NCBI RefSeq assembly: GCF_900182925.1
Contig: NZ_LT900024.1
Coordinates: 868,001-932,000 of the forward strand
DNA length: 64,000 nucleotides
Reading direction: 5' to 3'
DNA from: Psychrobacter sp. LV10R520-6
GTDB lineage: Bacteria > Pseudomonadota > Gammaproteobacteria > Pseudomonadales > Moraxellaceae
Below, in pieces: positions 23,236 to 53,566 of the stretch; positions within the stretch are counted from its first letter, which is position 1; each line of letters opens with the position of its first letter. The translations under genes and the position numbers were made by a program. The notes under the pieces were generated by a model. It worked only from the letters and a program-made list of their open reading frames with translations. It did not search any database and was not told where the DNA came from.

Positions 23236-23458
23236 TTTTGTTATTCCTTAACTTATGATCTATTAACTTGTAGTGACTGGTAACTTAAAAGGTTACCTTT
23301 ATACAATGTTTGATGATTGTGACTGATGAAGTGCTCAAAGTCTGTTATAAAAAAAATGGTTGATATAGGTATTCAAAAATAAAGTAAACAAAGTAGGGCG
23401 TGTCGGTTACTAAAAAGGCCTGCCTTTTTGGTCGCTATTTTTCAATATGACTCGTTTT

Positions 23459-24527: not shown

Positions 24528-24537
24528 GGAAATCCTC

Positions 24538-25362: not shown

Positions 25363-25974
25363 ATGGGAAAACTGGTTAGTATTGGGGAGGCGGCCAAGCA
25401 TTTTGGGGTTGCTCAATCGACATTAAGACGTTGGGATGAAGATGGTACGTTAGTCGCCAAAAGAACCGAAAATGGTCACAGACGTTATGATTTAAATGAA
25501 GTAAGACCACACCCTTTAAATACACCACCAAAATTAGACCGAAAAACCATTGCTTATGCTCGTGTTTCAAGTCGTGACCAAAAAGATGACTTGCAGCGCC
25601 AAGCGCAGGTTTTGGAACTTTATTGTGCCAAACAAGGTTGGCGTTTCGAGACAATCACCGATTTTGGTAGTGGTATGAACTATAAGAAGAAAGGCTTAAA
25701 AACCCTGCTTGACGACATTCTTGACAACAAAGTCGAGCGACTGGTAATCACCCACAAAGACAGACTTTTACGCTTTGGTGCTGAATTGGTGTTTATGCTA
25801 TGTGAGGCGCGTGATGTTAAGGTGGTCATTATCAATCAAGGCGAGGAACTTAGTTTTGAGCAAGAATTAGCCCAAGATGTATTAGAGATTATCACTGTAT
25901 TTTCAGCGAGGCTCTACGGTTCTCGCAGCAAGAAAAATCAAAAACTAATAGAGGCGGTTAAACAAGTATTATGA
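25363..25974 (+). CDS. tnpA: IS607-type serine recombinase TnpA
   Basis: This 203-residue transposase has an N-terminal MerR-like helix-turn-helix (VSIGEAAKHFGVAQSTLRRW, residues 5-24), then a serine recombinase domain with the nucleophile in IAYARVSSRDQKDDLQRQ (about 63-80). Further family residues are in TDFGSGMNYKKKGLKTLL and VITHKDRLLRFG. The small size and the order DNA-binding then catalytic domain are characteristic of IS607 rather than Tn3 resolvases. It overlaps tnpB by 4 bp. No damage is visible, so mobility may be retained. Confidence 0.92.
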   Translation: MGKLVSIGEAAKHFGVAQSTLRRWDEDGTLVAKRTENGHRRYDLNEVRPHPLNTPPKLDRKTIAYARVSSRDQKDDLQRQAQVLELYCAKQGWRFETITDFGSGMNYKKKGLKTLLDDILDNKVERLVITHKDRLLRFGAELVFMLCEARDVKVVIINQGEELSFEQELAQDVLEIITVFSARLYGSRSKKNQKLIEAVKQVL

Positions 25975-33837: not shown

Positions 33838-33941
33838 TGTTTTCTCTATCAAATTTACGTCAATATTCCAGCTATTAGCAAATACTATTTAAAGGATTTA
33901 CTCTTGCGCATCTAAAATTGGCATGCAATTTTTTAACGATG
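33838..33941. repeat. Trailer-unit fragment embedded within the array
   Basis: About 104 bp between two truncated repeats match the 192-bp distal units: TTTTCTCTATCAAATTTACG, ATTAGCAAATACTATTTAAAG, then CTAAAATTGGCATGCAATTT. The central part with the perfect inverted repeat is missing. It divides the array in two and shows that the right-hand block once ended in its own trailer. Confidence 0.88.
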
Positions 33942-36900: not shown

Positions 36901-39900
36901 GATGAAGCGTTATTTGGCTGACTCTCCATGCGTTTATCATTTCTAAGTCACCTGAGCGGTGATGAAGTCAAGCGGTTGGAAGTCATAATTAACCTGGGTT
37001 TTCTAAGTCACCTGAGCGGTGATGAAGATCACTAAAAATTTGTACTTGAAGAAATGGTGTTTCTAAGTCACCTGAGCGGTGATGAAGCCCAAGCCGCTGT
37101 TGCACCAGTAGCCATACCTTTTCTAAGTCACCTGAGCGGTGATGAAGGTTGCAGCAATGTGATGTGGCTTTCATTATCAGTTTCTAAGTCACCTGAGCGG
37201 TGATGAAGCGCAGATTTGAGCAAACAGCCGCTAACATGATTTTCTAAGTCACCTGAGCGGTGATGAAGACATCAGTCCATTTGATATTGCCAAGTCTCAA
37301 TTTCTAAGTCACCTGAGCGGTGATGAAGGCAAATGTGTGACTCAGTAAAAGTAATTAAGTTTTCTAAGTCACCTGAGCGGTGATGAAGGCATAATCTATG
37401 TGCCTTTGCTTCTCTACAATTTTCTAAGTCACCTGAGCGGTGATGAAGACGCATCGGTAATCGACGGTTTACGCCAAGTATTTCTAAGTCACCTGAGCGG
37501 TGATGAAGAATTAGGCCGCCCGCTTGTATATGCTCGAAAATTTCTAAGTCACCTGAGCGGTGATGAAGTTTAGGTGGGCTTTTTTACGTTTTGGCTTACA
37601 TTTCTAAGTCACCTGAGCGGTGATGAAGGATCACCGCCCCTATGAACAAAGACGGCAGCCTTTCTAAGTCACCTGAGCGGTGATGAAGTTGAAGTGGGTT
37701 TGGTTTGCGAGATTGAAGGATTTCTAAGTCACCTGAGCGGTGATGAAGTTTTTATTGATAGTCTTATTCGTAGGCTTAGTTTTCTAAGTCACCTGAGCGG
37801 TGATGAAGTATCACTCTCATTTTGATAACGAGCCGATAACTTTCTAAGTCACCTGAGCGGTGATGAAGCTAGCTATTGTCACCACTAATAATAACGAGAA
37901 TTTCTAAGTCACCTGAGCGGTGATGAAGTAGTTTTAATGCTATTGCTAGCTGTTAATGCTTTTCTAAGTCACCTGAGCGGTGATGAAGGACAGTGATACT
38001 ATAGAATACTATCAAAGCATTTTCTAAGTCACCTGAGCGGTGATGAAGGTGCAAGCCCTGATAGATTGATAGGCGCTGATTTTCTAAGTCACCTGAGCGG
38101 TGATGAAGGCTTGGTTTTCTGTTCGGTCTTTTCTTCAGCATTTCTAAGTCACCTGAGCGGTGATGAAGTTAGCAGACGCTGAGGAAGAAGACGAACAGAT
38201 TTTCTAAGTCACCTGAGCGGTGATGAAGTTGGGCTTGTGTTTTTGCTGGCGTCAGCACTTTTTCTAAGTCACCTGAGCGGTGATGAAGCCTTATCGCTCT
38301 TAACCCACTCTTCGCGCTGATTTCTAAGTCACCTGAGCGGTGATGAAGCTTCCGCTTTACCGACATACTCGCTATCATGCTTTCTAAGTCACCTGAGCGG
38401 TGATGAAGTCAGTAAGTCAGTGGTGAGTAAGTATGAGTATTTTCTAAGTCACCTGAGCGGTGATGAAGCGGTGGTCGCATTACTAGGGCGGGATTTGTTG
38501 TTTCTAAGTCACCTGAGCGGTGATGAAGGCATGGGCGGTGAGCATGAGTGATATTGACATTTTCTAAGTCACCTGAGCGGTGATGAAGCGGCTGCCTAAC
38601 TTCATTTTGTAATGCTTGTATTTCTAAGTCACCTGAGCGGTGATGAAGCACAACAAGCCTTTAGGTGTCATCGTCCGACTTTTCTAAGTCACCTGAGCGG
38701 TGATGAAGACTCGTTATATGTTTTCGTATATTTTGTCCAGTTTCTAAGTCACCTGAGCGGTGATGAAGCCAAGCATTCCTGAACCAACGCTAATCATTGA
38801 TTTCTAAGTCACCTGAGCGGTGATGAAGATCAAACGGGTTAATAAAATCAGTGTGAGCTATTTCTAAGTCACCTGAGCGGTGATGAAGAAACAGCTTGTG
38901 AATGTCATAATCTTTCTGCGTTTCTAAGTCACCTGAGCGGTGATGAAGCTATTGGCCGATATGGGCAGCGCAATCGAGATTTTCTAAGTCACCTGAGCGG
39001 TGATGAAGTTGGGGACAGCCGTATCAACTGGGACGCCCTATTTCTAAGTCACCTGAGCGGTGATGAAGAGGTTCCATATTATTCTCCTAATTACCCAAAC
39101 TTTCTAAGTCACCTGAGCGGTGATGAAGACCCATTGCCTTTTTTTGTGTCTAAATTTTGATTTCTAAGTCACCTGAGCGGTGATGAAGCAAGGCTGGAAG
39201 TTTATGGCATGTTTGAAGCTTTTCTAAGTCACCTGAGCGGTGATGAAGCTCAAGAAGTTTGTATGCGTATTCCGGTAAATTTTCTAAGTCACCTGAGCGG
39301 TGATGAAGTGGGCGAGGTCACAGCGTGTTATTTTTGCATCTTTCTAAGTCACCTGAGCGGTGATGAAGACATGGAAGTGATGCTGTACTAACCCCCTAAT
39401 TTTCTAAGTCACCTGAGCGGTGATGAAGTTATGCGTCTTGGCTTGTCCAGAAAGGGGTTGTTTCTAAGTCACCTGAGCGGTGATGAAGGCTTTAAGGCAT
39501 ATTGACTTTTGCCATTCCTATTTCTAAGTCACCTGAGCGGTGATGAAGCCATTACTCCAGCGGAAGCTGGGCAAATCAGTTTTCTAAGTCACCTGAGCGG
39601 TGATGAAGCGCATGATGGTCGGGCTAAAGACCCTTCATTGTTTCTAAGTCACCTGAGCGGTGATGAAGGCCAAGTGATTGCCGCTGACGACTTTTTAACC
39701 TTTCTAAGTCACCTGAGCGGTGATGAAGTCCTATATTGAGCTGGGTAGCTGCTGGTAGTTTTTCTAAGTCACCTGAGCGGTGATGAAGTTGTGCGCTTGC
39801 TTGGCGTCCCCTGTCAGCTTTTTCTAAGTCACCTGAGCGGTGATGAAGCTTCGTTGCGCGGGCTTGGGTCAGGCAAGTAATTTCTAAGTCACCTGAGCGG

Positions 39901-42900
39901 TGATGAAGATGAAGATGAAGATGCATTGATGATAGATAGGGCGGTATTTCTAAGTCACCTGAGCGGTGATGAAGTAACTGGTGCGGTCGAGGCGGTTTCT
40001 GCTAATTTTCTAAGTCACCTGAGCGGTGATGAAGCCTTTGCCCTCCAGTTAACATCTTTTGTCTATTTCTAAGTCACCTGAGCGGTGATGAAGTTTACAC
40101 TAGTATTAATGGGTTACGCATTGTTTTTCTAAGTCACCTGAGCGGTGATGAAGATATTCAAGTTTTTCAGCTGTTCTTCTCTGTTTTTCTAAGTCACCTG
40201 AGCGGTGATGAAGTGGTGACCATGTAGCTTTAGTAAAACGTGGGCTTTCTAAGTCACCTGAGCGGTGATGAAGCTAATTGGTTTGCTTGGGGTATTAGTG
40301 ATTGATTTCTAAGTCACCTGAGCGGTGATGAAGCAAGCCATAAGTAAATCGCTCATTAGATAATATTTCTAAGTCACCTGAGCGGTGATGAAGGGGGTAG
40401 CGCCCAATTCACTTTTAAAATAAATTTTCTAAGTCACCTGAGCGGTGATGAAGGATGAAATTAATGCGGTATGGGAAAACGCTCTTTTCTAAGTCACCTG
40501 AGCGGTGATGAAGAAGCCACTGACGGCTTTTTATTATCAATCTGTGTTTCTAAGTCACCTGAGCGGTGATGAAGTTGACATTGTTAATCCTTTGTTGGTT
40601 AGTAGTTTTCTAAGTCACCTGAGCGGTGATGAAGTTGACATTGTTAATCCTTTGTTGGTTAGTAGTTTTCTAAGTCACCTGAGCGGTGATGAAGCAAGTA
40701 GCTTGATAACTACATCTTGCCAGTTCTTTCTAAGTCACCTGAGCGGTGATGAAGACTAGCCCACCCAAAAAGTGGCGATTTGATAGATTTCTAAGTCACC
40801 TGAGCGGTGATGAAGATTTTTAACTCAATAACTAACAAAGTTAACGATTTCTAAGTCACCTGAGCGGTGATGAAGTCCGCGACTGCTCAACAGGTCATCA
40901 AGGATATTTTCTAAGTCACCTGAGCGGTGATGAAGGTTTGATGCTGACACGCTTTTCGATATGTATGATTTCTAAGTCACCTGAGCGGTGATGAAGACTG
41001 TATCGTCATCTAATAGATCGCACTCACCTTTCTAAGTCACCTGAGCGGTGATGAAGCGAGTGGTGCTTTATTCAATGGGCGTTTTTATTTTCTAAGTCAC
41101 CTGAGCGGTGATGAAGCATTGACACCCTCTGTCAACCATGGACGAGCATTTCTAAGTCACCTGAGCGGTGATGAAGCAAGTTTAGATAACATCATGGGTA
41201 ACACGCGATTTCTAAGTCACCTGAGCGGTGATGAAGAGTGGCAGTTAAGGGGTTATATGTGGCTGTATTTTCTAAGTCACCTGAGCGGTGATGAAGTGAG
41301 CGCAAGGAGACCGACTTATCAGACAGATTTTCTAAGTCACCTGAGCGGTGATGAAGAGATGTGCAAGACAGGCATGGTTATGGCACATTTTCTAAGTCAC
41401 CTGAGCGGTGATGAAGAACTCATCAGCATAACGGTTGTATATCTTGGTTTTCTAAGTCACCTGAGCGGTGATGAAGTCAAACGTCAGTGCTGACATTCAA
41501 ACGGTTAGTTTCTAAGTCACCTGAGCGGTGATGAAGCTAAAGCGGTATTGTACTTAGACGGCTTATAATTTCTAAGTCACCTGAGCGGTGATGAAGGAAT
41601 ATGCCTTTGACAGCAATGTTGTCGCTAATTTCTAAGTCACCTGAGCGGTGATGAAGTTTGTGGGTTTGAGGCATCTCTATACTCATCGTTTCTAAGTCAC
41701 CTGAGCGGTGATGAAGAGTTGTCGAATGGCTTTGCAAAGAAGTCGATATTTCTAAGTCACCTGAGCGGTGATGAAGCACTGTAACCGGCACCACCATGCG
41801 AGCAAATGTTTCTAAGTCACCTGAGCGGTGATGAAGGCGGCGATGGGTTCCCGATGATAGCCAAGCATTTTCTAAGTCACCTGAGCGGTGATGAAGGTTA
41901 GGGCCGCAGTTTGACGGGCTTCTTCCGATTTCTAAGTCACCTGAGCGGTGATGAAGACTTAATGGCAGATATAAACAACCTTGGATCATTTCTAAGTCAC
42001 CTGAGCGGTGATGAAGGATGCTGAGAAATCAAAGAACAGACCATTGGTTTTCTAAGTCACCTGAGCGGTGATGAAGTCTTGCGGTAATGGTAGGCTTAGA
42101 TTGCTTGCTTTCTAAGTCACCTGAGCGGTGATGAAGTACTTGGCTTAACTGAGCCTAAGCCTGACATTTTTCTAAGTCACCTGAGCGGTGATGAAGACTG
42201 AGACAGGACAAGCATATCACGGGCAATGTTTCTAAGTCACCTGAGCGGTGATGAAGAAAACCCATCTGCGGAACTCTTTTGCTTTGTCTTTCTAAGTCAC
42301 CTGAGCGGTGATGAAGCTCTGACGGCTTGACTGTGGGGTAATCATTTTTTTCTAAGTCACCTGAGCGGTGATGAAGCACTTGATGAAACACAAGGCGGTA
42401 TAGGTCGTTTTCTAAGTCACCTGAGCGGTGATGAAGTCAAACGCTGAAGCTGGACATGCTCCATCTATTTTCTAAGTCACCTGAGCGGTGATGAAGATTC
42501 TAAAACTGGATCAGCGGGACATTGTGCATTTCTAAGTCACCTGAGCGGTGATGAAGAAAAGCGAACATAAGCAGACTAACTATTATTATTTCTAAGTCAC
42601 CTGAGCGGTGATGAAGCTGCCGTCCAATTGAGTTGTTGACGCTTAAATTTTCTAAGTCACCTGAGCGGTGATGAAGGCGACAATAAATAGAGAAGTTAGT
42701 TTTGCTAGTTTCTAAGTCACCTGAGCGGTGATGAAGTTTTGTCTCCTGTCTTGTAGTTTTTAAATGCTTTTCTAAGTCACCTGAGCGGTGATGAAGACCA
42801 GATGGAAACTGACCAATTATTTCACTGCTTTCTAAGTCACCTGAGCGGTGATGAAGTAAAGATTAGAGCACCAGTTGCACCAGTTGCATTTCTAAGTCAC

Positions 42901-43635
42901 CTGAGCGGTGATGAAGTAATTCATTGGATAGCCTCACGGTAAGAGTAATTTCTAAGTCACCTGAGCGGTGATGAAGTACATTTGAATTGAGCTCTATCTT
43001 CCCTATAATTTCTAAGTCACCTGAGCGGTGATGAAGTTAACCCCTGTTGCGTCATACCAAGCACAAGTTTTCTAAGTCACCTGAGCGGTGATGAAGAATT
43101 TAAGTCAGTCTGAGCTGATGTTCTATATTTTCTAAGTCACCTGAGCGGTGATGAAGATGTAAGACATCAGGCTCTTTTTTATGACGATTTTCTAAGTCAC
43201 CTGAGCGGTGATGAAGTCTTACATGCTTATGAGCTTGATTATCAAGATTTTCTAAGTCACCTGAGCGGTGATGAAGACCAATCGCCACCACAGAGGGGAT
43301 GACTTGGATTTCTAAGTCACCTGAGCGGTGATGAAGCCTTAATCATCATCATGCCTTTGTCAGTCTGATTTCTAAGTCACCTGAGCGGTGATGAAGCAAA
43401 AGCATACAAAGGGGATCCCGGCCCAAAATTTCTAAGTCACCTGAGCGGTGATGAAGTCAATGGGGTGTTTTTGGTGATTCGCCTCTATTTCTAAGTCACC
43501 TGAGCGGTGATGAAGCCGAGGGTGAAAAAGGCAGGCTGTGCTTTGTATTTCTAAGTCACCTGAGCGGTGATGAAGGAGCAAACTTGCAACATACCTTCGT
43601 TTGGAAATTTCTAAGTCACCTGAGCGGTGATGAAG
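33942..43635 (-). CRISPR. Type I-F CRISPR array, leader-proximal block (162 repeats, 161 spacers)
   Basis: This block has the same 28-bp repeat and about 32-bp spacers. The most distal repeat (33942-33969) has the degenerate CTCA in place of TTTC, as at the true trailer end at 28410. The most recent repeat is at 43608-43635, next to the leader and csy4. Unusual spacer lengths are 30 nt (before 36880) and 38 nt (39909-39946, starting with extra ATGAAG units). Two adjacent spacers at about 40574 and 40634 are identical. Transcription on the minus strand is inferred from the handle orientation and cas gene side. Confidence 0.97.
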
Positions 43636-43813: not shown

Positions 43814-44419
43814 TTACCAATGTGGCACGGTAACCTGACCTATTTTATTATTCATACCATAAACATTGAACGTGCCTTTACAAGCGCTGGCAGTTACTTC
43901 TTGAAAAATTGCCAGTTTATAAGGTTGTTGATTGGTCTCACTTTTTAAGTTGATATGAGGATAGGGCTTATTATCCTGTTTATGCGCAGCACAGTGTACA
44001 AGCGCATCTTCAAGGCTGATGTCTTTATGTTTGGCAAATTCTTCAGCTTGCTTGAGCGGATTTTTTGGACGATAGCGGCTGACCACCAGATGACTTTTTG
44101 TCTTATCACCGACCTCGATAATACTTTTAATATGCACATAATCAGTTAGTCTTGATAGCCAACCGTTGAGATTTAGTGTTTCTAAATCCTTTTGGCTGAG
44201 CGCAAACACTCGCAGCTTAAGCCCAAGCTTGGATGATTTACCCTTGTCATCATAATGATAATCAGGAAAGCTGACACCAATTGACTCGATGCCATGCTTG
44301 TTTTTGATCTCAGCTAAGCCGATATGCAACTGTGTAAACAGCTTACTCCAGATAAAGTAGGGTGCAATATCAGGATCGGGAATAATAGTGATTTCTTGGT
44401 AATGCGTCAGTTGACTCAT
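43814..44419 (-). CDS. cas6f: Type I-F crRNA endonuclease Cas6f (Csy4)
   Basis: This 201-residue protein is the usual length for Csy4. An N-terminal RRM-like segment contains His32 (LFTQLHIGLAEI), matching the catalytic His29 of Pseudomonas Csy4. The C-terminal part has VTASACKGTFNVYG, typical of the family. It cleaves pre-crRNA at the base of the repeat stem and stays bound to it in Cascade. It is the last cas gene before the array and starts 3 bp after csy3 ends. It should also process the diverged repeats at 48070-48152 if their hairpins are recognised. Confidence 0.93.
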   Translation of the reverse strand: MSQLTHYQEITIIPDPDIAPYFIWSKLFTQLHIGLAEIKNKHGIESIGVSFPDYHYDDKGKSSKLGLKLRVFALSQKDLETLNLNGWLSRLTDYVHIKSIIEVGDKTKSHLVVSRYRPKNPLKQAEEFAKHKDISLEDALVHCAAHKQDNKPYPHINLKSETNQQPYKLAIFQEVTASACKGTFNVYGMNNKIGQVTVPHW

Positions 44420-44422
44420 GGT

Positions 44423-45457
44423 TTACTCCTTACCGCTGGCACCGAACACGCCGCCACGAATAAGTACGCCCATTACATAGTGTTGCTGGTTGGCGTCTGG
44501 CGCTTCACCTTTGAGTACCCAGTTATCAAATAGGCTATAAAAGTCCATTTTGTCTTTAGGTTGGCGAAATGCAGTACCCATAGTTGTCACTGCGCCATAT
44601 GGTTCGATGGCAATAGGGAATTTGGCATTAGGGTACCAATCATCAATAGTGCGAATGGCGTTACTGACTTTTTGCGAGTGCATGCCAGCATTATCTTCAG
44701 AGCCCTTTCGGTCACTGACACGATATAATACTTTGCTCTTTTTACTGCCGGTATCAAGGATTAGCTCTTGTGATGGATAGACCTCTTGACCATAACCGAT
44801 GACCGCTTGAGCTTCTATATATAGAATAATAAACGCTTCATCATTTAGCCCCGCTTTAATCCAGTCAGCAACTTGCTTAATATTGGCATCATCCATGTCA
44901 AAATTGTTAATGCTGTAGTTCTTTGCATCATCAATAGTGATCGTTTTCTCGTTACACTTAACAGTTACTTTAATGCTTTCAGTACCAACACGATTTCGCC
45001 ATAACCAACGAGCGTTTAGAATATTAATCGCATAGCGGTGAGCTAACTCGTCTAACCCTTGGTTGCTTATATAGTCAGTGACGACTTGCTGTAATGCTTG
45101 TTGATAATCTTGGTCATTACAGACATTTGGCTTGCCCGTAAACGGTAGAACTTTGACACTAAAACGAGCGATTAAGATGTCATTTGATTCATCCAAGGAT
45201 GCTGAGTCGACCTTTTGTAAATTGGCTTTTTCAGTCTCGGCATCTAGTTTGGTAGGGTCGTTAGTAATGGTGCTTTTTAGACGATTGCTAATCGTACCAC
45301 GAACGGATTTTTCTTTGATCACCACCGGTGTCCGTGTAGATTCTTTATTTTTATCAGTATCGGCTTGACTGTTAGTCTGCCAGAGATAAGCATCTGAGAC
45401 ATCAAGGTTGCGTTCAAATGCAAGAACAGATGCGGTTTTTAAAGTGGGTTTTGACAT
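44423..45457 (-). CDS. csy3: Type I-F Cascade backbone protein Cas7f (Csy3)
   Basis: The frame is open to 45484, but the ATG at 45455-45457 (MSKPTLKTASVLAFERNL) is chosen because GGAG lies 6 nt upstream and homologues begin near LKTASVLAFER; this gives 344 residues. Csy3 forms the six-subunit helical backbone that coats the crRNA spacer. Characteristic segments include NILNARWLWRNRVG and VEPYGAVTTMGTAFR-like IEPYGAVTTMGTAFRQP, and VLIRGGVFGASGKE at the end. It lies 96 bp downstream of csy2 and 3 bp upstream of csy4. Confidence 0.93.
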   Translation of the reverse strand: MSKPTLKTASVLAFERNLDVSDAYLWQTNSQADTDKNKESTRTPVVIKEKSVRGTISNRLKSTITNDPTKLDAETEKANLQKVDSASLDESNDILIARFSVKVLPFTGKPNVCNDQDYQQALQQVVTDYISNQGLDELAHRYAINILNARWLWRNRVGTESIKVTVKCNEKTITIDDAKNYSINNFDMDDANIKQVADWIKAGLNDEAFIILYIEAQAVIGYGQEVYPSQELILDTGSKKSKVLYRVSDRKGSEDNAGMHSQKVSNAIRTIDDWYPNAKFPIAIEPYGAVTTMGTAFRQPKDKMDFYSLFDNWVLKGEAPDANQQHYVMGVLIRGGVFGASGKE

Positions 45458-45553
45458 GGGATTCTCCATAGTTGTTATAGTCATTGTGCTGAAAGACTTG
45501 GATGTTATTTAGTTTTCAAAAGACGGCTGTTATTAAAGCTAAGATCAGTGGTG

Positions 45554-46504
45554 TTAGTCGTCATCAGACTGGGTGACTAAATACAGGTTATTAGATTCGT
45601 CATACTGTTGGTACCAAAGCGCATCTGCTAAGTCTTTGATACGATATGGGAACACCCATTTGCCAAGTCCATAGATGGCTTCGACGTATTGGCTAGGATA
45701 TTCAGGGTTACGGACATTTTGCATATCACCGGCATCATATAAGTCTGAAATACCTTGATGACCAATGGGAATAGGGACTAACCACCCTCTACCTTGTTTG
45801 GAGGATTGCGTCTCCCAACGGGTCGTTCCATTGCCATTATCAATGGGAGTATGCTCTAAGGTGGCTGTATTGATTAACGCATCTAAAGCGGTGGCTTCTG
45901 GATTATGCTGTTGTAATTGTGCGGTAATATCGATTAGATCTTGTTGCGCGTTCATTAAAATAAATGCGGGAAGTAAATGACGAGTAAAATCATTAATGTC
46001 TTCTGCTGGTAAATAGGTAACGGCATTAAATCTGTCTAGACCATGGACGCTGCCACCTGCTATCCGTTGTTGCTGTATTTTGATTTCAACAGTTTTTAAT
46101 AGTTGGTCGATCTGTTCCTCTTCAAGTATAAAATCATCCGCATAGACCCCGACGATCAATGACACTTTTAGATGACAACGGCCCTCTTCAATGATTGAAG
46201 CCGTTTTGCCAGATTTTAGGATAGGATTACGAGTTTGGTTAAAGGTATATTCTTTATAGTTTTCCTCACGGTATATCTGCGGTAGACACTCATAGCAACC
46301 TATCAGGACACCGTCTAAATGCATCTGTTCAAGTCCTGATACCTGCCCAATTTTACGACTGAGCGCATGGATGGCGCCTGTAAAACCAGTGATCGCCGGA
46401 AATCCATAAGTTATCGGACTGGATATCGCATTGGCATCTTGAATACGGATGTTCTTAATCAAGATATGGCCAACCAGTTCTTTGTCAGGATAGATATAAC
46501 TCAT
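45554..46504 (-). CDS. csy2: Type I-F Cascade protein Cas5f (Csy2)
   Basis: This 316-residue protein contains the diagnostic Csy2 N-terminus (VGHILIKNIRIQDANAISS then TYGFPAITGFTGAIHAL) and the C-terminal VEAIYGLGKWVFPYRIKDL. Csy2 caps the 5' handle of the crRNA together with Csy1 and helps in PAM recognition. The ATG overlaps the csy1 stop (ATGA arrangement), so translation is coupled. Confidence 0.93.
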   Translation of the reverse strand: MSYIYPDKELVGHILIKNIRIQDANAISSPITYGFPAITGFTGAIHALSRKIGQVSGLEQMHLDGVLIGCYECLPQIYREENYKEYTFNQTRNPILKSGKTASIIEEGRCHLKVSLIVGVYADDFILEEEQIDQLLKTVEIKIQQQRIAGGSVHGLDRFNAVTYLPAEDINDFTRHLLPAFILMNAQQDLIDITAQLQQHNPEATALDALINTATLEHTPIDNGNGTTRWETQSSKQGRGWLVPIPIGHQGISDLYDAGDMQNVRNPEYPSQYVEAIYGLGKWVFPYRIKDLADALWYQQYDESNNLYLVTQSDDD

Positions 46505-47919
46505 TTGAATGCTCCTTGACCCATACGTTTAGACTCTTTTAACGCGGCTTGCATCTCATTCTCCCACTGGGTTTGTTCGGCGTCAGCAAAGTCGTCTTTG
46601 ATTTTGGGAAACTCCTTTTTCAGTAAGTTTTGTAGCCAAGCTGCAAATCGCTGTTCTATTTCTTGTTGCCAATAGCCGTTGTCAAAGTCAGTTTTAAACG
46701 TGTCTTCGTCCATTAGCTCTTTACGATAAGGATCAAGCCAAAGCTTTTCAGCATAATCAAGCTGATATTCAGCTGACCAGCCAGCAGGTCGATTGTTCTG
46801 AACGCTGTTCGCCACAGTCAGTATCTGTAGTAGCAGCTCGTCCAAGAGTGACTTGCGGGTGTCTCGTATTGTCACGTTGTTATAATTAGTTTTAATAATC
46901 TTGTACAAGGCATCTAGTGTCTTTCTAGTTTTATAAGCCATTGTTTTAGAATTAAAGATACTACTGGCATTTTTACTAAATGATAAATCTTGTGATTGTG
47001 TAAAACTGGGAGGCAGGGAAGGGAGGAGATAGTTTCTACCACTCTGTTTGCTGATGAGTTTGCTAATGTTTTGTGGTTTGGTGCCACCCAGTTGCAACAC
47101 AGCTAAATCATGTATCGTGATATAAGGCTGTTGTTCAGCTGTTTTTTTGTGTCGATTATCGCGAGCAAGTTTATTCTCTTCAGAGAATTTTAGATGGTTA
47201 ATATGTCGAAACAGCTCATGAGTTAATACAGAGGGATATAAAGGAATAATAGTATGATAATCCGCTGTAGTAGTAGCTGTAATTGAGTCTTCGCTGCACT
47301 CAAGAGGCCATAGTAATTGTTTATTACGCTCATGGGTGGACGGATTATCAATTTGTCTGGTTAAGGTACTAACAAATACCTGTTGATATACGTCTGATAA
47401 AGTTTGTTCCTCAGCGAAGCTACCAGATAGAGCAGGATGATTAGTCAGCAGTAAATCACGAACAGTCAGTTTTGGAGATTTATGATCCGCACTAGCACCA
47501 TCAGTAACGCCATCTCTAGTAATCGTCCAATCAAACAAACCGGCTAATGGTAGTGCCGCTGCGTTGCCATTAGCATCCATCAAGCCGCTAATAAGACTAT
47601 GAGTACCCATAAAGTCATGCTGAGGTTGGCTTCGAAAGTTGACGTTGTCGCCCTTAGCGTTTGGATGAACACCTTTTGAGATATGGGTGCCGAAGTTAAG
47701 CTGGGTTGCCATTGTCTTGGCTTCTATCATCCAATTGACTTTGTTAAATTTCTCCTTAAAAGGGCCTAGCTGCGACTGCAATTCACTAATATCAGCAAAG
47801 TCTTTAGATTCCTCTGCTTTAACAAGTTTCTTTTGAATGGACTCTGTTTTTTTATCGTATTGCGACTGCAAAAAATTATCAATGGCCTGTTTAACCTGAG
47901 CTTGGGTGATATTTTTCAT
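46501..47919 (-). CDS. csy1: Type I-F Cascade large subunit Cas8f (Csy1)
   Basis: This 472-residue protein begins MKNITQAQVKQAIDNFLQSQ and shows Csy1 features: KGVHPNAKGDNVNFRSQ, HSLISGLMDANGNAAALPLAGLF-type segment near residue 110-130, GGTKPQNISKLISKQSGRNYLLPSLPP near 275-300, and WLDPYR. Csy1 recognises the GG/CC PAM. It is the first gene of the csy operon. Its predicted promoter is overlapped by a sequence matching the pseudo-spacer of the adjacent mini-CRISPR, which suggests autorepression by Cascade. Confidence 0.93.
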   Translation of the reverse strand: MKNITQAQVKQAIDNFLQSQYDKKTESIQKKLVKAEESKDFADISELQSQLGPFKEKFNKVNWMIEAKTMATQLNFGTHISKGVHPNAKGDNVNFRSQPQHDFMGTHSLISGLMDANGNAAALPLAGLFDWTITRDGVTDGASADHKSPKLTVRDLLLTNHPALSGSFAEEQTLSDVYQQVFVSTLTRQIDNPSTHERNKQLLWPLECSEDSITATTTADYHTIIPLYPSVLTHELFRHINHLKFSEENKLARDNRHKKTAEQQPYITIHDLAVLQLGGTKPQNISKLISKQSGRNYLLPSLPPSFTQSQDLSFSKNASSIFNSKTMAYKTRKTLDALYKIIKTNYNNVTIRDTRKSLLDELLLQILTVANSVQNNRPAGWSAEYQLDYAEKLWLDPYRKELMDEDTFKTDFDNGYWQQEIEQRFAAWLQNLLKKEFPKIKDDFADAEQTQWENEMQAALKESKRMGQGAFK

Positions 47920-47982
47920 TTTGTAACCCTTGAATTGTTCAAAAGTAATGATTTAACTTGTAATTAGACTAACATAGTTTTA

Positions 47983-48011
47983 TATATGATTGCCACTATA
48001 ACGTTAGTAAA
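47983..48011 (-). promoter_or_regulatory. Predicted csy operon promoter
   Basis: On the minus strand TTTACT (48006-48011) and CATATA (47983-47988) are spaced 17 bp apart, giving a start near 47976, about 57 bp before the csy1 ATG. The boxes are weak (4 of 6 each), so placement is tentative, but no better pair is visible in the csy1 upstream region. Confidence 0.45.
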
Positions 48012-48021
48012 ATTCATATTG
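47993..48021 (+). promoter_or_regulatory. Cascade target site (CC PAM plus protospacer) over the csy1 promoter
   Basis: A 5'-CC PAM (47993-47994) is followed by a 27-bp protospacer that matches the pseudo-spacer at 48098-48124 in 20 of the first 24 positions, on the same strand. The mismatches are at spacer positions 6, 8, 15 and 18. Positions 6 and 18 are flipped out and not read in type I Cascades. The site covers the predicted csy1 -35 box. Imperfect pairing would favour binding without Cas3 cleavage. Confidence 0.8.
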
Positions 48022-48027
48022 ATAATA

Positions 48028-48056
48028 TTGACATTTTTTTGTATATTTAGATTAAT
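48028..48056 (+). promoter_or_regulatory. Promoter of the mini-CRISPR (CreR-like) RNA
   Basis: A perfect TTGACA -35 (48028-48033), 17-bp spacer and ATTAAT -10 (48051-48056) predict transcription from about 48063, 7 bp before the first pseudo-repeat. It lies just beyond the Cascade target, so bound Cascade may also hinder this promoter. Confidence 0.7.
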
Positions 48057-48062
48057 GGTGCT

Positions 48063-48152
48063 AATATCTTCTCACTATCATAAAGATAGCTTAGAAAACT
48101 ATTAGGTTAGTTAAGTTCATAACCTTTCACCACCGCACAGGTGGCTTATCAG
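48063..48152 (+). ncRNA. CreR-like Cas-regulating RNA: degenerate mini-CRISPR
   Basis: Two diverged I-F repeats flank a short spacer. Pseudo-repeat 1 (48070-48097) has stem CTATC/GATAG with loop ATAAA, then the exact canonical handle CTTAGAAA. Pseudo-repeat 2 (48125-48152) matches the array repeat at 21 of 28 positions. In it the closing stem pair T-A is replaced by C-G, a compensatory change, and the tail is CTTATCAG. Both are exactly 28 nt with 5-bp stems and 5-nt loops. The pseudo-spacer is 27 nt (48098-48124) and matches the csy1 promoter region next to a CC PAM. Cas6f processing would give an RNA of about 55 nt that guides Cascade to repress csy1. It is transcribed opposite to csy1, toward higBA. 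Confidence 0.82.
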
Positions 48153-48153
48153 A

Positions 48154-48192
48154 TTGCTATTACTTACGCATGGCGTTATTATAACGCTATGC
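48154..48192 (+). promoter_or_regulatory. higBA promoter and palindromic operator
   Basis: TTGCTA (48154-48159) and TATTAT (48177-48182) are spaced 17 bp apart. An 11-bp-arm palindrome (GCATGGCGTTA at 48168-48178, TAACGCTATGC at 48182-48192, one G-T mismatch, TTA between) overlaps the -10. This is a typical site for HigA autorepression. The promoter begins directly after pseudo-repeat 2. Confidence 0.65.
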
Positions 48193-48216
48193 CTTACCAA
48201 CTATAGGACAATTATT

Positions 48217-48498
48217 ATGATTGCCTCTTTTGCTGATAAGGCGACAGCAGCAGTATATTTTGGCAAACGAGCCAAACGTATTGCACCCGATATTTATAGT
48301 CGTGCAAGAGCCAAACTGCATGTACTAAATGTCACGGACAATCTTGACGATCTGCGCCTACCGCCGAGCAACCACCTTGAAAAGTTAACAGGTGATCGTA
48401 ACGGTCAATATAGTATTCGCATCAACCAACAATGGCGCATCTGCTTTGAATGGCATGATGGTTACGCTGAGAACGTCGAGATAGTCGATTACCACTAA
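48217..48498 (+). CDS. higB: HigB-family (RelE-like) toxin embedded in the cas locus
   Basis: The ATG at 48217 (MIASFADKATAAVYFG) is used; a longer frame starting with TTG at 48154 would begin inside the promoter. The 93-residue protein has the HigB pattern FGKRAKRIAP...LDDLRLPPSNHLEKLTGDRNGQ with the conserved C-terminal YSIRINQQWRICFEW. HigB toxins are ribosome-associated mRNA interferases. The toxin gene precedes the antitoxin gene by 10 bp, the usual higBA order. The module runs opposite to the cas genes, between cas2-3 and csy1. The close paralogue at 24105 is inactivated. Confidence 0.9.
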   Translation: MIASFADKATAAVYFGKRAKRIAPDIYSRARAKLHVLNVTDNLDDLRLPPSNHLEKLTGDRNGQYSIRINQQWRICFEWHDGYAENVEIVDYH

Positions 48499-48508
48499 GG
48501 AAATCTGC

Positions 48509-48862
48509 ATGTCTATAACGATGCAAGAAGCTAAAAGCATGGATTTCAGCGATGTTGCCGACACAACGTTACCTGATATTCCATTATTAACACCGGGTGA
48601 ATACCTTAAAACTGAATTCCTAGATGAACTGGGTTTATCAGCGTATGCGCTTGCCCGTGCCACCCATATGCCAGATTCACGACTTAGTGAAATAATCAAT
48701 GGCAGACGGACGATAACAGCAGATACGGCGCTGAGATTGGCAAAATACTTCGGTATGTCCGCGCAGTTTTGGCTCAATCTACAAAGTCATTACGATCTTG
48801 AGATTACAAGGCGAGAAGTGGCAGACGATATCGATACTATTGAACCTCATGATATGGCATAG
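48509..48862 (+). CDS. higA: HigA-family antitoxin
   Basis: This 117-residue XRE-type DNA-binding antitoxin has SRLSEIINGRRTITADTAL and RLAKYFGMSAQFWLNLQ as its helix-turn-helix region. It should neutralise HigB by direct binding and repress the operator at 48168-48192. Its stop is 15 bp from the convergent end of cas2-3. It is nearly identical to the orphan HigA at 24538, so cross-neutralisation is likely. Confidence 0.9.
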   Translation: MSITMQEAKSMDFSDVADTTLPDIPLLTPGEYLKTEFLDELGLSAYALARATHMPDSRLSEIINGRRTITADTALRLAKYFGMSAQFWLNLQSHYDLEITRREVADDIDTIEPHDMA

Positions 48863-48877
48863 CTGATATCGTCAGCC

Positions 48878-51800
48878 TTAACTATAATCATTCATAAACA
48901 TACCTTCATCTTTCCAGCAGCCGAAGCGTTCATCAAACAGCCAGCCATTTTTGGAATCATAGACTGACAATACCGCAAATCTTATTAAGATCGTATTGGG
49001 GCTTAAATCAGAGAGTTCTGCTTGCACCTCTACTAACGCATCATTTAAATTGTCAGTTAACCATGGAGTTATGTGTGAATTAGCTATAGATAACTTAGTT
49101 GGTTTAATTACCTTTTTTACTGAGTTTGCAGACGATATGCCTTTTTCTTTGGCTTGTTCCGCGATATAAACTGAATAATTCTGGTTTTCAAAATCATGAT
49201 TATCGCTCTGTTCTAAGTCATTTGATGCAGCATATAACAGCTCATTATTGGTCACAGAGGTTTTGAAGTTTATTGGTTCGATAATGTATTCGACCTGTGC
49301 TTGTCCGGCCCGAAAAGGAGTTAAACAACTAAGATGGACGTGTGAGCGATTTGAGGTTTGTATGTTTTGCCAATAACCATTAACAACATTGGTTTTATTA
49401 TTGGTCATCAAGTCTGCCATTACACTGTGTTCTAAATCGCTTAAATAGCGTGCCGCTTCAAACTCAGCTTCTGGCGCTTTGATAATCCTTGGAATAGCAT
49501 CAACCCGTCTTAGTTCAGAGGCTCTAATGATCTCATTACTATCATGACTGGCTAATAAGAAGCTCGCTTGTTCAAACCCAGGCCGAGTAAATACCTCTGT
49601 GCCTATACCTCGATTGGGTTGTTTTAATGACTTGATATTGTATTGCATGATACTGATGTTTGGCAGAATGGCTTGTTTATTAGGGCGATGCCGCCAGACT
49701 CTTCCTGCCAGTTGAATGATTGAGCGCATAGAGGAGGGCTCTACGATAGCCCAATCATAATCATGGTCGCGCCCAACTTCGGCGACTGGTGTCGCTAGTA
49801 CTATAAAAACATGATGGGTTTTATTAGGATGCTGCCGAATGGCTTGATTGATATCGTCATGTTTAAACAAGCAGTTATCATCATCGGAGTCCCTTTTTAG
49901 AATAGTATCTAGTTTTTTTTCTAGACGGTTACGTAGAATTAAAACCTGATTGGCGTGGTAACAGCACAAATGATATTGAGTGGTCTCTGCTGCTGGCGTG
50001 TTATCGAGATTGAACATAGCGATAGCGGTATTCATCAATGGCTGAATATTGGCCATACGAATCAGACCAATACTCACACGATGTCGGCTGTCCTCTTTAA
50101 GGATATTATGATTTTGATGTAACACTTGTGATTGGTTGAGTAACGCTGCCGCAAATGCTTCATAAAAGGTGATATGTTGTTCTTTGTTATACACTATCGA
50201 TAGAGGTAGGATATCTGCCTGCCGCCGAGTAGGCTGTTGGTTCAGGAAGTCCGTTCTAGCACTGACAAAGTCACTATGATGTTGCTTAAAGTCATGGGTG
50301 TCATCACACGGCATGGCGACACAGCGATTTTCATCAAACCAACCACAAATAACTTTAGGAGTGGGCTTTTGCAGTTGCGCATTAAATAACTTTCTACCCG
50401 CCAGATAGGCCTCGAACAATCCTTGTACCATATCTGGGGGTAAGGTTGCGGAAGACAGCATCACTCTAGTGCCGAATAATCCTGCTAAATGTATAAGCCT
50501 CGATAATGCTGGCAAGTCATTATGATCGAAGTCATCCGGTTCATCTAAAATCAGGTCACTGCTCAGCAGGCGCAATATAGGGGCGATATGCTTCCCTCCT
50601 CTTTTACATTCAGAAGCTTGCATGAGGTGATCAATCGTACAAACAACGACTGGCGCAAATAACAGCTCACGAGCTTTTTGACTTTCAATAACTGTGCCTA
50701 GACCTAATTCCTCATAATCTGCAATATCAATCTCGCTATCTACCCATTCATCTATTAATGGATTGGCAGACTCACTACCATATACGGACTCATAATTTAC
50801 GGATTCATAGTTATCTTGGTAATCAGATGGCGTGCTTTGGTTATCTGCATTGTTGCTGTCGGACTCATTTTTAGAGGCTTTGTTTTGGTTCAGCTCAAAC
50901 AGTTGCTTTTGTGCGCTGCCGCCAACTAAGACAGCGAGTTGATTGGCGTCAAGTTGCAAATCCTCTCTAAAACTAAGCCCTGTTTGTAAGGTTAAGACTC
51001 TAAGACCCAACGCAACAGTGATTCTTGCCCCTTTTTTGGGATCGCTTAAACCATACATAATGCGAGCGTTACCGATAGTCTTTCCGGCTCCTGTTGATGC
51101 CATATTGACCCCAAAGAAACCATGGCTTTCACTCAACTCACGATACTGATAAGCCAGCTTAAAGGCCTTATTCTGCCATTTAAAGCGTTTGTGAGCGGTG
51201 TTTTTGACTAAAGGATCATGTTGGGTAAGTCGGGGTAGTCCTTCGTGGATGGCAGGCAGTGCCCGACAAAACTGCGCGGTAAACTCGCTGACACCGATTA
51301 GATGTTCATCCAGTGCTTGTTTAATTTCATTGGTTTGCCGATCAGTATTAGCAGCTAGCTTATCTTTAAACTCAATACTTCCTTGCACTCGTCTTTTGTC
51401 ATTTGCATCAAGACTTGAATAATTATGGTCACCTATCATCAAACATAACCGGGATAAGTGTAGTAAAAATGGATCGCTGATAGCGTACTGATGCACAGTA
51501 GCATGCTGACTAAGTTGTTGTAGCTGCGGATGAAGCGCCGCTTTTTTTGTCCAACGTTTAAGTTTACGTTGCCATAAAGGACTATAAATCACCAGCTCAT
51601 CAAATTGCCAAAAGCTTGTTTGTTGTGCTTCGGTCATCTCGTCAAAACTTCTAGGATTTCTTACCCAGTAGTCATGAGCTTTTATAACAGCATAGAACTT
51701 TTTTTGTTCAGCTTTAAGTTTGGGGTTGTTAGATTTTTTAAGGTTCTTAGCTGTCTTTTCATTGAACCAATATTCGGTGAGCGGAGGTAATCGGTGGTGA

Positions 51801-52444
51801 GTAACAATTAACCATGCTACCCATCCTGCTAATGGGGGTAGCTGATCCAGTTTGGCCTGTTCTGTTTTCTGTTGTAAGTCCTCTGACGTAAGGGTATTCG
51901 AGCTGAGAAAATCCGGTAGGTTTTGTAGTCGTAACAGCCACTGCTCATCGGTTTGACAATCTGTAACGAGCCAAATAAATAACTTAAGTGACACCCACTC
52001 ATGGCGGTATGGGTCACCCTGAAAGGTAGAGTGAAACAGCTTATGTTGAAAGCCAATAGTAGATTTGCCAATATCATGCAATAGAGCTGCGATAGTTGCG
52101 ATAATCTGCATACTTTCTAATGATGTCCACTCATTTTCCCACTCTCGGTGCAACAAATTGCGTCTAGTCTGATTCACCGGCACCACACCGATCTCATTAA
52201 ATTTACGCTTATTACCCACTATCCACACCAGCTCTGTCAGCTGGCGTGATTTATTACGATGACAGCTAACCGCCGTAGACTTGGTCGCTGATTTGCGGAG
52301 TAATTGCTTGACCGTTTTTAGCCCATCCTCTGTAATCGCGGTCTGCCATACATTGTTACCAATGCGATTGGCAAAGGTATCTAAGATACGCCGCGTACGA
52401 CTAAGCGATTTCTTTTCACACTGCGAGACAAAAGTGACAATCAT
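48878..52444 (-). CDS. cas3f: Type I-F Cas2-Cas3 fusion nuclease-helicase
   Basis: This 1188-residue fusion starts with a Cas2 domain (MIVTFVSQCEKKSLSRTRRI, about 1-95). A Cas3 HD nuclease follows (ALLHDIGKS, H123-D124, and later HEWVSLKLF), then an SF2 helicase with Walker A MASTGAGKTIG near 446, motif II LILDEPDDFD near 633, LSSATLPPD near 665 and motif VI LAGRVWRHRP near 912. The C-terminal accessory domain is present to the end. The protein joins Cas1 in adaptation and degrades DNA recruited by Cascade. All visible catalytic motifs are intact. cas1 lies 57 bp upstream on the same strand. Confidence 0.95.
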   Translation of the reverse strand: MIVTFVSQCEKKSLSRTRRILDTFANRIGNNVWQTAITEDGLKTVKQLLRKSATKSTAVSCHRNKSRQLTELVWIVGNKRKFNEIGVVPVNQTRRNLLHREWENEWTSLESMQIIATIAALLHDIGKSTIGFQHKLFHSTFQGDPYRHEWVSLKLFIWLVTDCQTDEQWLLRLQNLPDFLSSNTLTSEDLQQKTEQAKLDQLPPLAGWVAWLIVTHHRLPPLTEYWFNEKTAKNLKKSNNPKLKAEQKKFYAVIKAHDYWVRNPRSFDEMTEAQQTSFWQFDELVIYSPLWQRKLKRWTKKAALHPQLQQLSQHATVHQYAISDPFLLHLSRLCLMIGDHNYSSLDANDKRRVQGSIEFKDKLAANTDRQTNEIKQALDEHLIGVSEFTAQFCRALPAIHEGLPRLTQHDPLVKNTAHKRFKWQNKAFKLAYQYRELSESHGFFGVNMASTGAGKTIGNARIMYGLSDPKKGARITVALGLRVLTLQTGLSFREDLQLDANQLAVLVGGSAQKQLFELNQNKASKNESDSNNADNQSTPSDYQDNYESVNYESVYGSESANPLIDEWVDSEIDIADYEELGLGTVIESQKARELLFAPVVVCTIDHLMQASECKRGGKHIAPILRLLSSDLILDEPDDFDHNDLPALSRLIHLAGLFGTRVMLSSATLPPDMVQGLFEAYLAGRKLFNAQLQKPTPKVICGWFDENRCVAMPCDDTHDFKQHHSDFVSARTDFLNQQPTRRQADILPLSIVYNKEQHITFYEAFAAALLNQSQVLHQNHNILKEDSRHRVSIGLIRMANIQPLMNTAIAMFNLDNTPAAETTQYHLCCYHANQVLILRNRLEKKLDTILKRDSDDDNCLFKHDDINQAIRQHPNKTHHVFIVLATPVAEVGRDHDYDWAIVEPSSMRSIIQLAGRVWRHRPNKQAILPNISIMQYNIKSLKQPNRGIGTEVFTRPGFEQASFLLASHDSNEIIRASELRRVDAIPRIIKAPEAEFEAARYLSDLEHSVMADLMTNNKTNVVNGYWQNIQTSNRSHVHLSCLTPFRAGQAQVEYIIEPINFKTSVTNNELLYAASNDLEQSDNHDFENQNYSVYIAEQAKEKGISSANSVKKVIKPTKLSIANSHITPWLTDNLNDALVEVQAELSDLSPNTILIRFAVLSVYDSKNGWLFDERFGCWKDEGMFMNDYS

Positions 52445-52501: not shown

Positions 52502-53566
52502 TCACCACTCAGTAGTCATAGCAAGTTGTTTGATAACTTCGAACTGATAATCCAGCGCCTTATGCTTAGTAAACATATTAAGACACTCTTGCCGGAACTG
52601 CTGCTCACTAAGATTTTCGGCGGCGCAGATGAAGGCGAGGGGTAGCACGAGCGCGTCTTTGATGATATCGGCAATATCGAATACCAATGCACCACGCCGG
52701 GTTTTGCCATGCATCACCGCAAAGCCATGCGGAATACCCAACGTCCACGCTGTGGTTGCTCCAAGGCCGTAAGCCAAATAGTTGCCATGATTGAGAAAGC
52801 CATTGGCCTTATCAATGCCCTCATGCTCACGAGTAAAGCCATCATAGCCAGTATTCTTTGCGGCCAGCTTATACAGCTTCTTGGTAAGTCGTGCCTCAAG
52901 CTGTAGCAAGTGCATAACTTCTTGCTGTTGATCAATCTGACGGATATTATCTTTAAGTAGGGCTTGCACCGCATCAATACTGCTGTCAAAGCCCCATTGT
53001 TTTAAGTCGCTATCTTTACTCCAAACCGTTTGTAAGTAAGCGAGACGAGCGTGTTGTAAATGTTTGGCAGCGGTTAAGCGTTTTTCATCATCCCACCACC
53101 AACTCATCCAGCCTTGAATATATTCAGTGGGACGATACTCGCTTTGCGGGGTCATCCATTCAATAAAGACTTCACGTTCAGCACCCATAAATAACGGCAT
53201 ACCGCCACCACCGCAAAATCCGACCAGTACTCCCGCTTGCGATAACAATCGCATCGCCGCTTGAGTGATGGATGTCCCTGTGCCAAGCAGTATTGAGGTA
53301 GTATTAGCGATAGGAATGTTATAGTACAGATTGGCCTTGTCATCTTCGGTCAGGTATAACACGCGACCGTCTTTTTGCATGACGCGACAATGGGAGAGGT
53401 AGTAGATATTGGCACGTTTTGAGTGCAAGATTGTTTTAAGGTCTGAGCTGTCAAAAGCATTGTTGGTATAAGGATTACTAGGCTTTGCCACGTTGACTCC
53501 ATAACCAAACGCTAACGTATACGCTTGATGTTGTATAATGAGGTGATGGGTATGTTTTTCTGACAA
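52502..53566 (-). CDS. cas1: Type I-F CRISPR integrase Cas1
   Basis: This protein of up to 354 residues has the I-F Cas1 signatures: DLKTILHSKRANIYYLSHC, NIPIANTTSILLGTGTSITQ and VGFCGGGGMPLF. The metal-binding catalytic residues are a Glu in LLQLEARLTKKLY (near 224), a His in GFAVMHGKTRRG (near 287) and an Asp in LVFDIADIIKD (near 300). The start is a TTG at 53564-53566; no ATG is available before the conserved core. A GTG in NVAKPSNP would give a form about 25 residues shorter, and homologues often start nearer DLKTIL. It is the first gene of the cas1-cas2-3 unit. Confidence 0.93.
   Translation of the reverse strand: MSEKHTHHLIIQHQAYTLAFGYGVNVAKPSNPYTNNAFDSSDLKTILHSKRANIYYLSHCRVMQKDGRVLYLTEDDKANLYYNIPIANTTSILLGTGTSITQAAMRLLSQAGVLVGFCGGGGMPLFMGAEREVFIEWMTPQSEYRPTEYIQGWMSWWWDDEKRLTAAKHLQHARLAYLQTVWSKDSDLKQWGFDSSIDAVQALLKDNIRQIDQQQEVMHLLQLEARLTKKLYKLAAKNTGYDGFTREHEGIDKANGFLNHGNYLAYGLGATTAWTLGIPHGFAVMHGKTRRGALVFDIADIIKDALVLPLAFICAAENLSEQQFRQECLNMFTKHKALDYQFEVIKQLAMTTEW

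What the first reader, a model, noticed from the sequence alone, without database searches (positions are those of the whole stretch)
48063..48152. Degenerate mini-CRISPR (CreR-like Cas-regulating RNA) inside the type I-F cas locus
Seen: two 28-nt pseudo-repeats (48070-48097 and 48125-48152) on the plus strand, opposite to the array. Each keeps a 5-bp stem, 5-nt loop and 8-nt tail. The first has a wholly different stem (CTATC/GATAG) but the exact handle CTTAGAAA. The second has a compensatory T-A to C-G change at the base of the stem. A TTGACA-17-ATTAAT promoter starts 42 bp upstream of the first one. Known: CreA and CreR RNAs use diverged repeats and short spacers to guide Cascade to promoters. 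Inference: this RNA is processed by Cas6f and regulates the csy operon.
Basis: partly seen in the sequence, partly recalled or inferred. Interest (0 to 1): 0.95.

Follow-up and report, generated by a model that had tools for sequence, protein, structure and literature searches.

The report
Self-silencing guide RNA beside CRISPR genes
A tiny, decayed CRISPR unit inside a bacterium's own CRISPR gene cluster very probably makes a guide RNA that sends the CRISPR complex back to the front of its own genes to turn them down; the principle is known, but this copy sits next to a toxin-antitoxin pair and its relatives give clear evolutionary evidence of how it works.

Summary
Two 28-nt pseudo-repeats lie at 48070-48097 and 48125-48152, between csy1 and cas2-3 of a type I-F locus. 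25 of 58 examined family loci carry such a unit at the same place, and spacer and target have diverged together. Mismatches concentrate at positions 6, 12 and 18, the bases a Cascade complex flips out (repeated on other families). The pseudo-repeat stem covaries. A guide under 32 nt binds without Cas2/3 cutting in a studied I-F1 system (PMC7296934). Best reading: a CreR-type RNA by which the Csy complex represses its own operon. The kind is known (CreR, CreTA, I-F1 mini-arrays); this is a new member. Less expected: a co-oriented higBA pair fused to the second pseudo-repeat in three species. No transcript, processing or repression was tested.

The parts
48070..48097 (+). pseudo-repeat 1 (psiR1): diverged stem CTATC/GATAG, exact handle CTTAGAAA
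   Evidence: stem covaries over 23 loci
48098..48124 (+). 27-nt spacer-like guide (psiS)
48125..48152 (+). pseudo-repeat 2 (psiR2): repeat-like hairpin, diverged 3' tail
48090..48144 (+). predicted mature 55-nt RNA: 8-nt handle, 27-nt guide, 20-nt 3' hairpin
   Evidence: inference from the anatomy and from the handles of the I-F CreA mapped in PMC10097628
48039..48067 (+). likely promoter of the guide RNA: TTGTAT-17-TAATAT with TG before the -10
   Evidence: same register in L031 and L032
47993..47994 (+). PAM CC
47995..48021 (+). target of the guide (20 of the first 24 positions match)
47966..47971 (-). candidate extended -10 (TAGTCT, TG upstream) of the csy operon; weak, 52 nt before csy1 ATG
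46501..47919 (-). csy1 (cas8f)
45554..46504 (-). csy2
44423..45484 (-). csy3
43814..44419 (-). cas6f/csy4, expected processing nuclease
48878..52444 (-). cas2-3
   Evidence: Cas3f model
52502..53566 (-). cas1
48154..48193 (+). higBA promoter-like site (TTGCTA-17-TATTAT) with overlapping inverted repeat 48168-48192, likely HigA operator; starts 2 nt after the last base of psiR2
48217..48498 (+). higB-like toxin gene
48509..48862 (+). higA antitoxin gene
28410..43635 (-). CRISPR array, 252 repeats

Best explanation
A one-spacer mini-CRISPR makes a crRNA-like RNA (CreR type). Inferred steps: it is transcribed rightwards from about 48074; Cas6f cuts at the base of both pseudo-repeat hairpins; the 55-nt product, with the normal 8-nt handle and a 3' hairpin, is loaded into a Csy complex one Csy3 subunit shorter than usual. 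Shown in sequence: its guide fits a CC-flanked site just upstream of csy1 at 20 of 24 positions; the mismatches are at 6, 8, 15 and 18. Inferred: Csy sits on this site and lowers transcription of csy1-csy2-csy3-cas6f, by occluding the promoter or as a roadblock to read-through. Because the R-loop is shorter than 32 nt and mismatched, Cas2/3 is not triggered and the chromosome is not cut. The outcome would be negative feedback on Csy, relieved when array crRNAs or anti-CRISPRs take up the complex (this last point as described for CreR in reviews).
For: Target and PAM; 0 of 20,000 shuffled spacers and 0 of 5000 shuffled target regions reach 20 of 24 with CC. In the family, own spacer-target identity averages 0.77 over 27 spacers (2 array-like ones without target included) against a permuted maximum of 0.578 in 10,000; the window's own interval beats the other 26 for its spacer. 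With no PAM asked for, the best match is preceded by CC in 24 of 25. Mismatches over 23 loci: positions 1-5 0/115, 6 16/23, 12 17/23, 18 11/21, other positions of 7-17 27/223. In an order-wide set (caller applied to 900 nt upstream of csy1, no PAM asked) 16 of 40 loci were called and 14 of 16 had a CC-preceded best match; in those 14: positions 1-5 0/70, 6 10/14, 12 9/14, 18 8/13, others of 7-17 15/137. Stem covariation of psiR1 0.739; 0 of 500 shuffles reach it, slid versions at most 0.202. The recurring creT-like block is absent here (16 of 33 against 33 of 33 in L064, L065, L068). Truncated I-F1 Cascades bind and form R-loops but do not trigger Cas2/3 (PMC7296934, passages).
Against: No RNA or expression data. 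The csy promoter of this locus is weak by consensus, and the layout seen elsewhere (a -35 box directly at the PAM in 9 of 21 antisense-target family loci; a TTG within 0-3 nt of the PAM in 9 of 11 order-level ones, by eye) is absent here and in L031 and L032. psiR1 is diverged (16/28), so Cas6f cutting there is assumed. 33 of 58 family loci and 24 of 40 order loci gave no mini-CRISPR call, so the device is dispensable or often missed. For 9 of the 25 regulatory spacers one or two other intervals match as well as the own one, in part close relatives. Two of 16 order-level calls had no PAM-flanked best match. In most order-level loci the target is 189-741 nt from csy1, so there the regulated gene need not be csy1.
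Confidence: 0.82

Rival explanations
1. CreA-type antitoxin: the guide represses a small toxic RNA or mini-ORF (creT) hidden between target and csy1, and csy is only incidentally downstream.
For: Acinetobacter I-F CreTA sits in the same cas3-csy1 interval with a divergent creT (PMC10097628). In my set six loci (L054, L063-L066, L068) have targets 224-280 nt from csy1, room for creT.
Against: Here only 75 nt separate target and csy1, holding the csy1 leader. The creT-like block is absent (16/33). By eye no conserved mini-ORF is seen in that gap in the three nearest loci (alignment).
Confidence: 0.1
2. Guard of a protein toxin: the guide, or Cas6f cutting of a common transcript, controls higBA (CrePA-like logic). 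Not exclusive with the best explanation.
For: higBA is co-oriented and its promoter-like site starts right after psiR2 in three species; no guide-sense terminator-like site was found between guide and higB in the three (L031 has one on the other strand). The operator stretch is identical at 35 of 38 positions although the stretch left of psiR1 is identical at only 11 of 48.
Against: No second good PAM-flanked target in the window (next best 17 of 27) or in the three intervals (second-best 15-16 of 26). higBA has its own promoter-like site and likely HigA operator. A related higBA lies in G326 without this operator and without cas hits in the 8.4 kb fetched.
Confidence: 0.15
3. Decayed remnant of an ordinary array with no function.
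For: psiR1 is only 16/28 identical to the repeat; the spacer is short.
Against: Covarying stem, spacer-target co-divergence, mismatch rhythm, promoter register. Over 23 loci psiR2 has diverged most in its last five bases (0.54 identity), which the mature RNA would not hold; but among the three higBA loci that tail is kept (7 of 8).
Confidence: 0.02

Closest known systems
CreR (cas-regulating RNA, mini-CRISPR)
   Same: Degenerate two-repeat unit in a cas locus; partial match upstream of the effector operon; CRISPR effector as repressor (inferred here).
   Different: Named for I-B, I-E and V-A in a review passage (PMC13131331), for type I and V-A in another (PMC12737573); here type I-F. No expression evidence here.
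Type I-F CreTA of Acinetobacter (PMC10097628)
   Same: Same interval (cas3-csy1), psiR1 diverged and psiR2 repeat-like, CC-flanked target, guide unpaired at position 6.
   Different: There the target controls a toxic RNA and the mapped guide is 20 nt; here 27 nt, target next to csy1, no creT-like block, higBA present.
I-F1 mini-arrays of Shmakov et al. 2023 (NAR, PMC10450183; not held; content recalled from its abstract)
   Same: As recalled: mini-arrays partly complementary to promoters of cas genes, cas8 in particular, or of cargo genes such as toxin-antitoxins; one I-F1 mini-array shown to act as a regulatory guide.
   Different: I could not check whether this locus or the higBA layout is in their tables.
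CrePA (protein toxin repressed by CreA)
   Same: CRISPR effector linked with a protein toxin.
   Different: CreP is described as typically a KilA-N protein whose promoter is the target (PMC12737573); here higBA is a type II pair with no target site found.
Citrobacter rodentium type I-E CreTA (PMC12055562, passages)
   Same: crRNA-like element between cas3 and the effector operon, on the opposite strand, with a PAM-flanked partial match.
   Different: Type I-E; represses a 96-bp toxic ORF.

Membership tests
CreR | two degenerate repeats around a spacer, inside a cas locus | tested here: met
CreR | spacer partly complementary to a PAM-flanked site at the promoter of effector genes | tested here: inconclusive
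   PAM-flanked site 75 nt upstream of csy1: met; that this is the promoter rests on a weak extended -10
CreR | no toxin under its target | tested here: met
   75-nt gap to csy1 without creT-like block, (one known block tested; other toxins not excluded)
CreR | RNA made, processed and repressing cas expression | not testable with these tools
   needs RNA and reporter work
CreTA | creT toxin RNA downstream of the target | tested here: not met
   the block was taken by me from L064, L065 and L068 by place and look, and not compared with the published creT
CrePA | guide target in the promoter of the protein toxin | tested here: not met
type I-F CRISPR-Cas | Cas1f, Cas3f, Csy1-4 and an I-F repeat | tested here: met
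   for the proteins; the array repeat by likeness
HigBA type II toxin-antitoxin | HigB-like and HigA-like proteins side by side, toxin first | tested here: met

The most novel reading that the evidence does not exclude
Guide RNA and toxin-antitoxin form one transcript: with no terminator seen between psiR2 and higB, Cas6f cutting at psiR2 both releases the guide and trims the higBA messenger. Loss or inhibition of the Csy proteins would then raise csy expression and change higBA output at once. The cas3-csy1 interval would be a docking place for diverse toxin-antitoxin genes (HigBA in 3 loci, BrnT-like in L037, HipA-like with a helix-turn-helix partner in L124, PIN with MazE-like in L148) that guard the CRISPR locus. 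A second bold reading, likelier than the first: natural regulatory guides are built in whole Csy3 steps, length 6N-4, to bind without cutting (37 of 39 guides within 1 nt of 14, 20, 26 or 32).
Probability: 0.15. Interest if true: 0.72.

Novelty: new member of a known kind. Interest (0 to 1): 0.5.

Why it matters
If right, a type I-F system with a 252-repeat array controls its own effector by an RNA guide, and the locus joins this with a toxin-antitoxin pair. The comparative set gives a footprint of Cascade targeting read from evolution alone: seed 1-5 kept, every sixth base free, PAM kept, guide lengths in 6-nt steps. That makes such regulators easier to find in other genomes and gives exact positions to mutate.

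Tried and rejected
Rejected or unproductive. Second targets: the seed pattern in the own genome gives 2 exact and 17 one-mismatch places; of the 8 that became loci only the csy1 site extends well; trans targets were not otherwise excluded. Rfam: two sub-threshold CRISPR-DR4 hits and one microRNA hit taken as chance. The search for related loci with csy1 in genome contigs found nothing. A plasmid search gave 8 distant matches, the annotated ones RelE/ParE-family toxins. Two ORFs of the L067 interval and the partner ORF of BrnT in L037 had no Pfam match.

Limits of the counts. A first caller by summed score misplaced several pseudo-repeats and was replaced by a handle-anchored one, which asks for 7 of 8 handle bases, so handle conservation in psiR1 is not evidence. 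Dropped before counts: the second L050 call; the 32-nt array-like spacers of L037 and L046 (kept, out); near-duplicates L045 and L065 (out of the averages and; kept); L148 and L150 without CC match (out). Three of 61 loci lacked a cas3 hit and were not examined. Cargo genes were looked for only in 11 family intervals besides the window, L031 and L032, and in order-level intervals whose cas3-csy1 distance was 500-2500 nt.

Papers. PMC10097628: parts 1 and 2 of 8 and passages. PMC12737573, PMC13131331, PMC7296934, PMC12055562, PMC12948488: passages. PMC10651486 and PMC12373910: only the reference entries citing Shmakov 2023. Shmakov 2023 is recalled. Whether the length steps or the higBA layout are in print: the listings did not show it, but most subscription papers are not in that library.

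Full report
What is there. The window lies in a 3.2-Mb single-contig genome of the same genus as the genome behind L031; that genome's contig has the same length as a record titled Psychrobacter sp. I-STPA10. From right to left on the - strand the window holds cas1, cas2-3, csy1, csy2, csy3 and cas6f, all placed in type I-F families, and an array of 252 repeats. Between cas2-3 and csy1, on the + strand, lie the mini-CRISPR and a HigB-like/HigA pair.

The observation. Pseudo-repeats 48070-48097 and 48125-48152 are as described: 16/28 and 21/28 identical to the array repeat, each with a 5-bp stem and 5-nt loop. The Rfam I-F repeat model places both in register, below its gathering score. The intervening guide is 27 nt, while 236 of 251 array intervals are 32 nt.

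The missing piece: a target. The guide matches 47995-48021 at 20 of 27 positions (20 of the first 24), preceded by CC. The next best places in the 64-kb window have 17 of 27. No shuffled spacer of 20,000 reached 20 of 24 with CC (maximum 17), and no shuffled target region of 5000 (maximum 19). In the whole genome the pattern CC-ACTAT-N4-TTAGT occurs exactly twice, and of these only the csy1 site extends well.

Relatives. csy1 was found in 71 of 348 genomes of the family. I fetched 60 regions from 59 of them. Of these plus the window, 58 of 61 had both csy1 and cas3 hits, and 25 of 58 gave a mini-CRISPR call in the cas3-csy1 interval, every one on the strand opposite to csy1. Own spacer and own interval match at 0.77 on average over 27 spacers, two of which are ordinary-length spacers of short arrays and have no target; random re-pairing never exceeded 0.578 in 10,000 trials. 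For 16 of 27 spacers no other interval matches as well as the own one, the window among them; for 9 one or two others do. Asked without any PAM, the best site is preceded by CC in 24 of 25.

Mechanistic footprint. Over 23 loci (two near-duplicates dropped) mismatches are 0/115 at positions 1-5, 16/23 at 6, 17/23 at 12, 11/21 at 18 and 27/223 at the other positions of 7-17 (Fisher p about 1e-23 for 6, 12, 18 against the rest of 1-18, relatedness not corrected). This is the rhythm expected if every sixth base is flipped out of a Cascade R-loop (established knowledge of type I complexes, not from a call). I then took an order-wide sample: 52 of 390 genomes had a Csy1 match, 40 regions were fetched, the caller was run on 900 nt upstream of csy1, 16 of 40 were called, and 14 of 16 had a CC-preceded best match without asking for it. 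In those 14 the counts are 0/70, 10/14, 9/14, 8/13 and 15/137. The 5-bp stem of pseudo-repeat 1, not required by the caller, is kept with changes on both sides at five of five pairs; covariation score 0.739 against a shuffled mean of 0.378, reached by 0 of 500, and at most 0.202 when slid.

Length. Of 25 family guides 24 lie within 1 nt of 32-6n (22 nt is the exception); of the 14 order-level guides 13 do (lengths; 24 nt is the exception). A biochemical study of an I-F1 system gives length = 6N-4 for N Cas7f subunits, a lower limit near 14 nt, and R-loops of truncated complexes that do not trigger Cas2/3 (PMC7296934, passages). The 27-nt guide here would fit a complex one subunit short. This explains in outline how the system could bind its own chromosome unharmed (inference).

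Promoters. In 12 of 23 loci a sigma-70-like -10 box scoring above 5 starts 8 or 7 nt before pseudo-repeat 1; every other offset has at most 2. Here that is TTGTAT-17-TGC-TAATAT, 48039-48067, in the same register in L031 and L032. For csy, in 9 of 21 antisense-target family loci a -35 box begins directly at the PAM, and in 9 of 11 antisense-target order-level loci a TTG lies 0-3 nt beyond it (by eye). The window, L031 and L032 lack this and offer only a weak extended -10, 46-52 nt before csy1. Read-through from cas1-cas2-3 with Csy as a roadblock is an open alternative.

CreR or CreA. In Acinetobacter the same interval carries CreTA with a toxic RNA (PMC10097628). Here target and csy1 are 75 nt apart and the creT-like block of L064, L065 and L068 is missing. 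I took that block as creT from its place and ribosome-site-like stretch, not from the paper's sequence. The CreR reading is therefore preferred, at 0.82.

higBA. In the window, L031 and L032 the pair follows pseudo-repeat 2 in the same direction; the higA product is 85% identical in both relatives while csy1 is 54%. The promoter/operator stretch is identical in the three at 35 of 38 positions, against 11 of 48 just left of pseudo-repeat 1. No guide-sense terminator-like site was found between guide and higB in the three. The guide has no good second target there. Other intervals hold a BrnT-like gene (L037) and DUF2188 genes (L033, L035), and HipA-like, Fic and PIN/MazE-like genes (L124, L127, L148). 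Of the last three, L124 and L127 had no mini-CRISPR call and L148 had one without PAM-flanked match. Coupling of toxin-antitoxin output to Csy is thus an idea, not a result.

Known or new. CreR is named for I-B, I-E and V-A in a review passage. I-F1 mini-arrays that act on cas8 promoters and on toxin-antitoxin cargo are, as I recall, in Shmakov et al. 2023, which is not held. I file this as a new member of a known kind.

Noticed in passing
window 24140-24891: Second higBA copy (higA 91% identical) on the far side of the array; by eye its higB is interrupted by a short insert and no mini-CRISPR stands in front.
   Followed up: partly
window 28410-43635: Very long I-F array: 252 repeats, 3 spacers present twice, one 158-nt gap between repeats.
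   Followed up: no
window 25363-27125: Two ORFs that look, by eye only, like an IS607-type resolvase and a TnpB protein, close to the far end of the array.
   Followed up: no
window 22489-23922: Two adjacent ORFs on the - strand look by eye like near copies of each other, the second truncated.
   Followed up: no
L033 and L035, cas3-csy1 interval: A DUF2188 gene sits between the guide's target and csy1, so it would be the first gene under the target.
   Followed up: partly
L042, L050 and L141, upstream of csy1: Natural guides of only 13-14 nt with CC targets, at the lower limit reported for I-F1 complexes.
   Followed up: partly
L037 and L046, cas3-csy1 interval: Short arrays in which a 32-nt ordinary-looking spacer without target precedes the regulatory 20-nt spacer.
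   Followed up: no
L067, cas3-csy1 interval (1315 nt): Two unidentified ORFs of 137 and 70 aa in guide-sense orientation, possibly another two-gene cargo; no Pfam match.
   Followed up: partly
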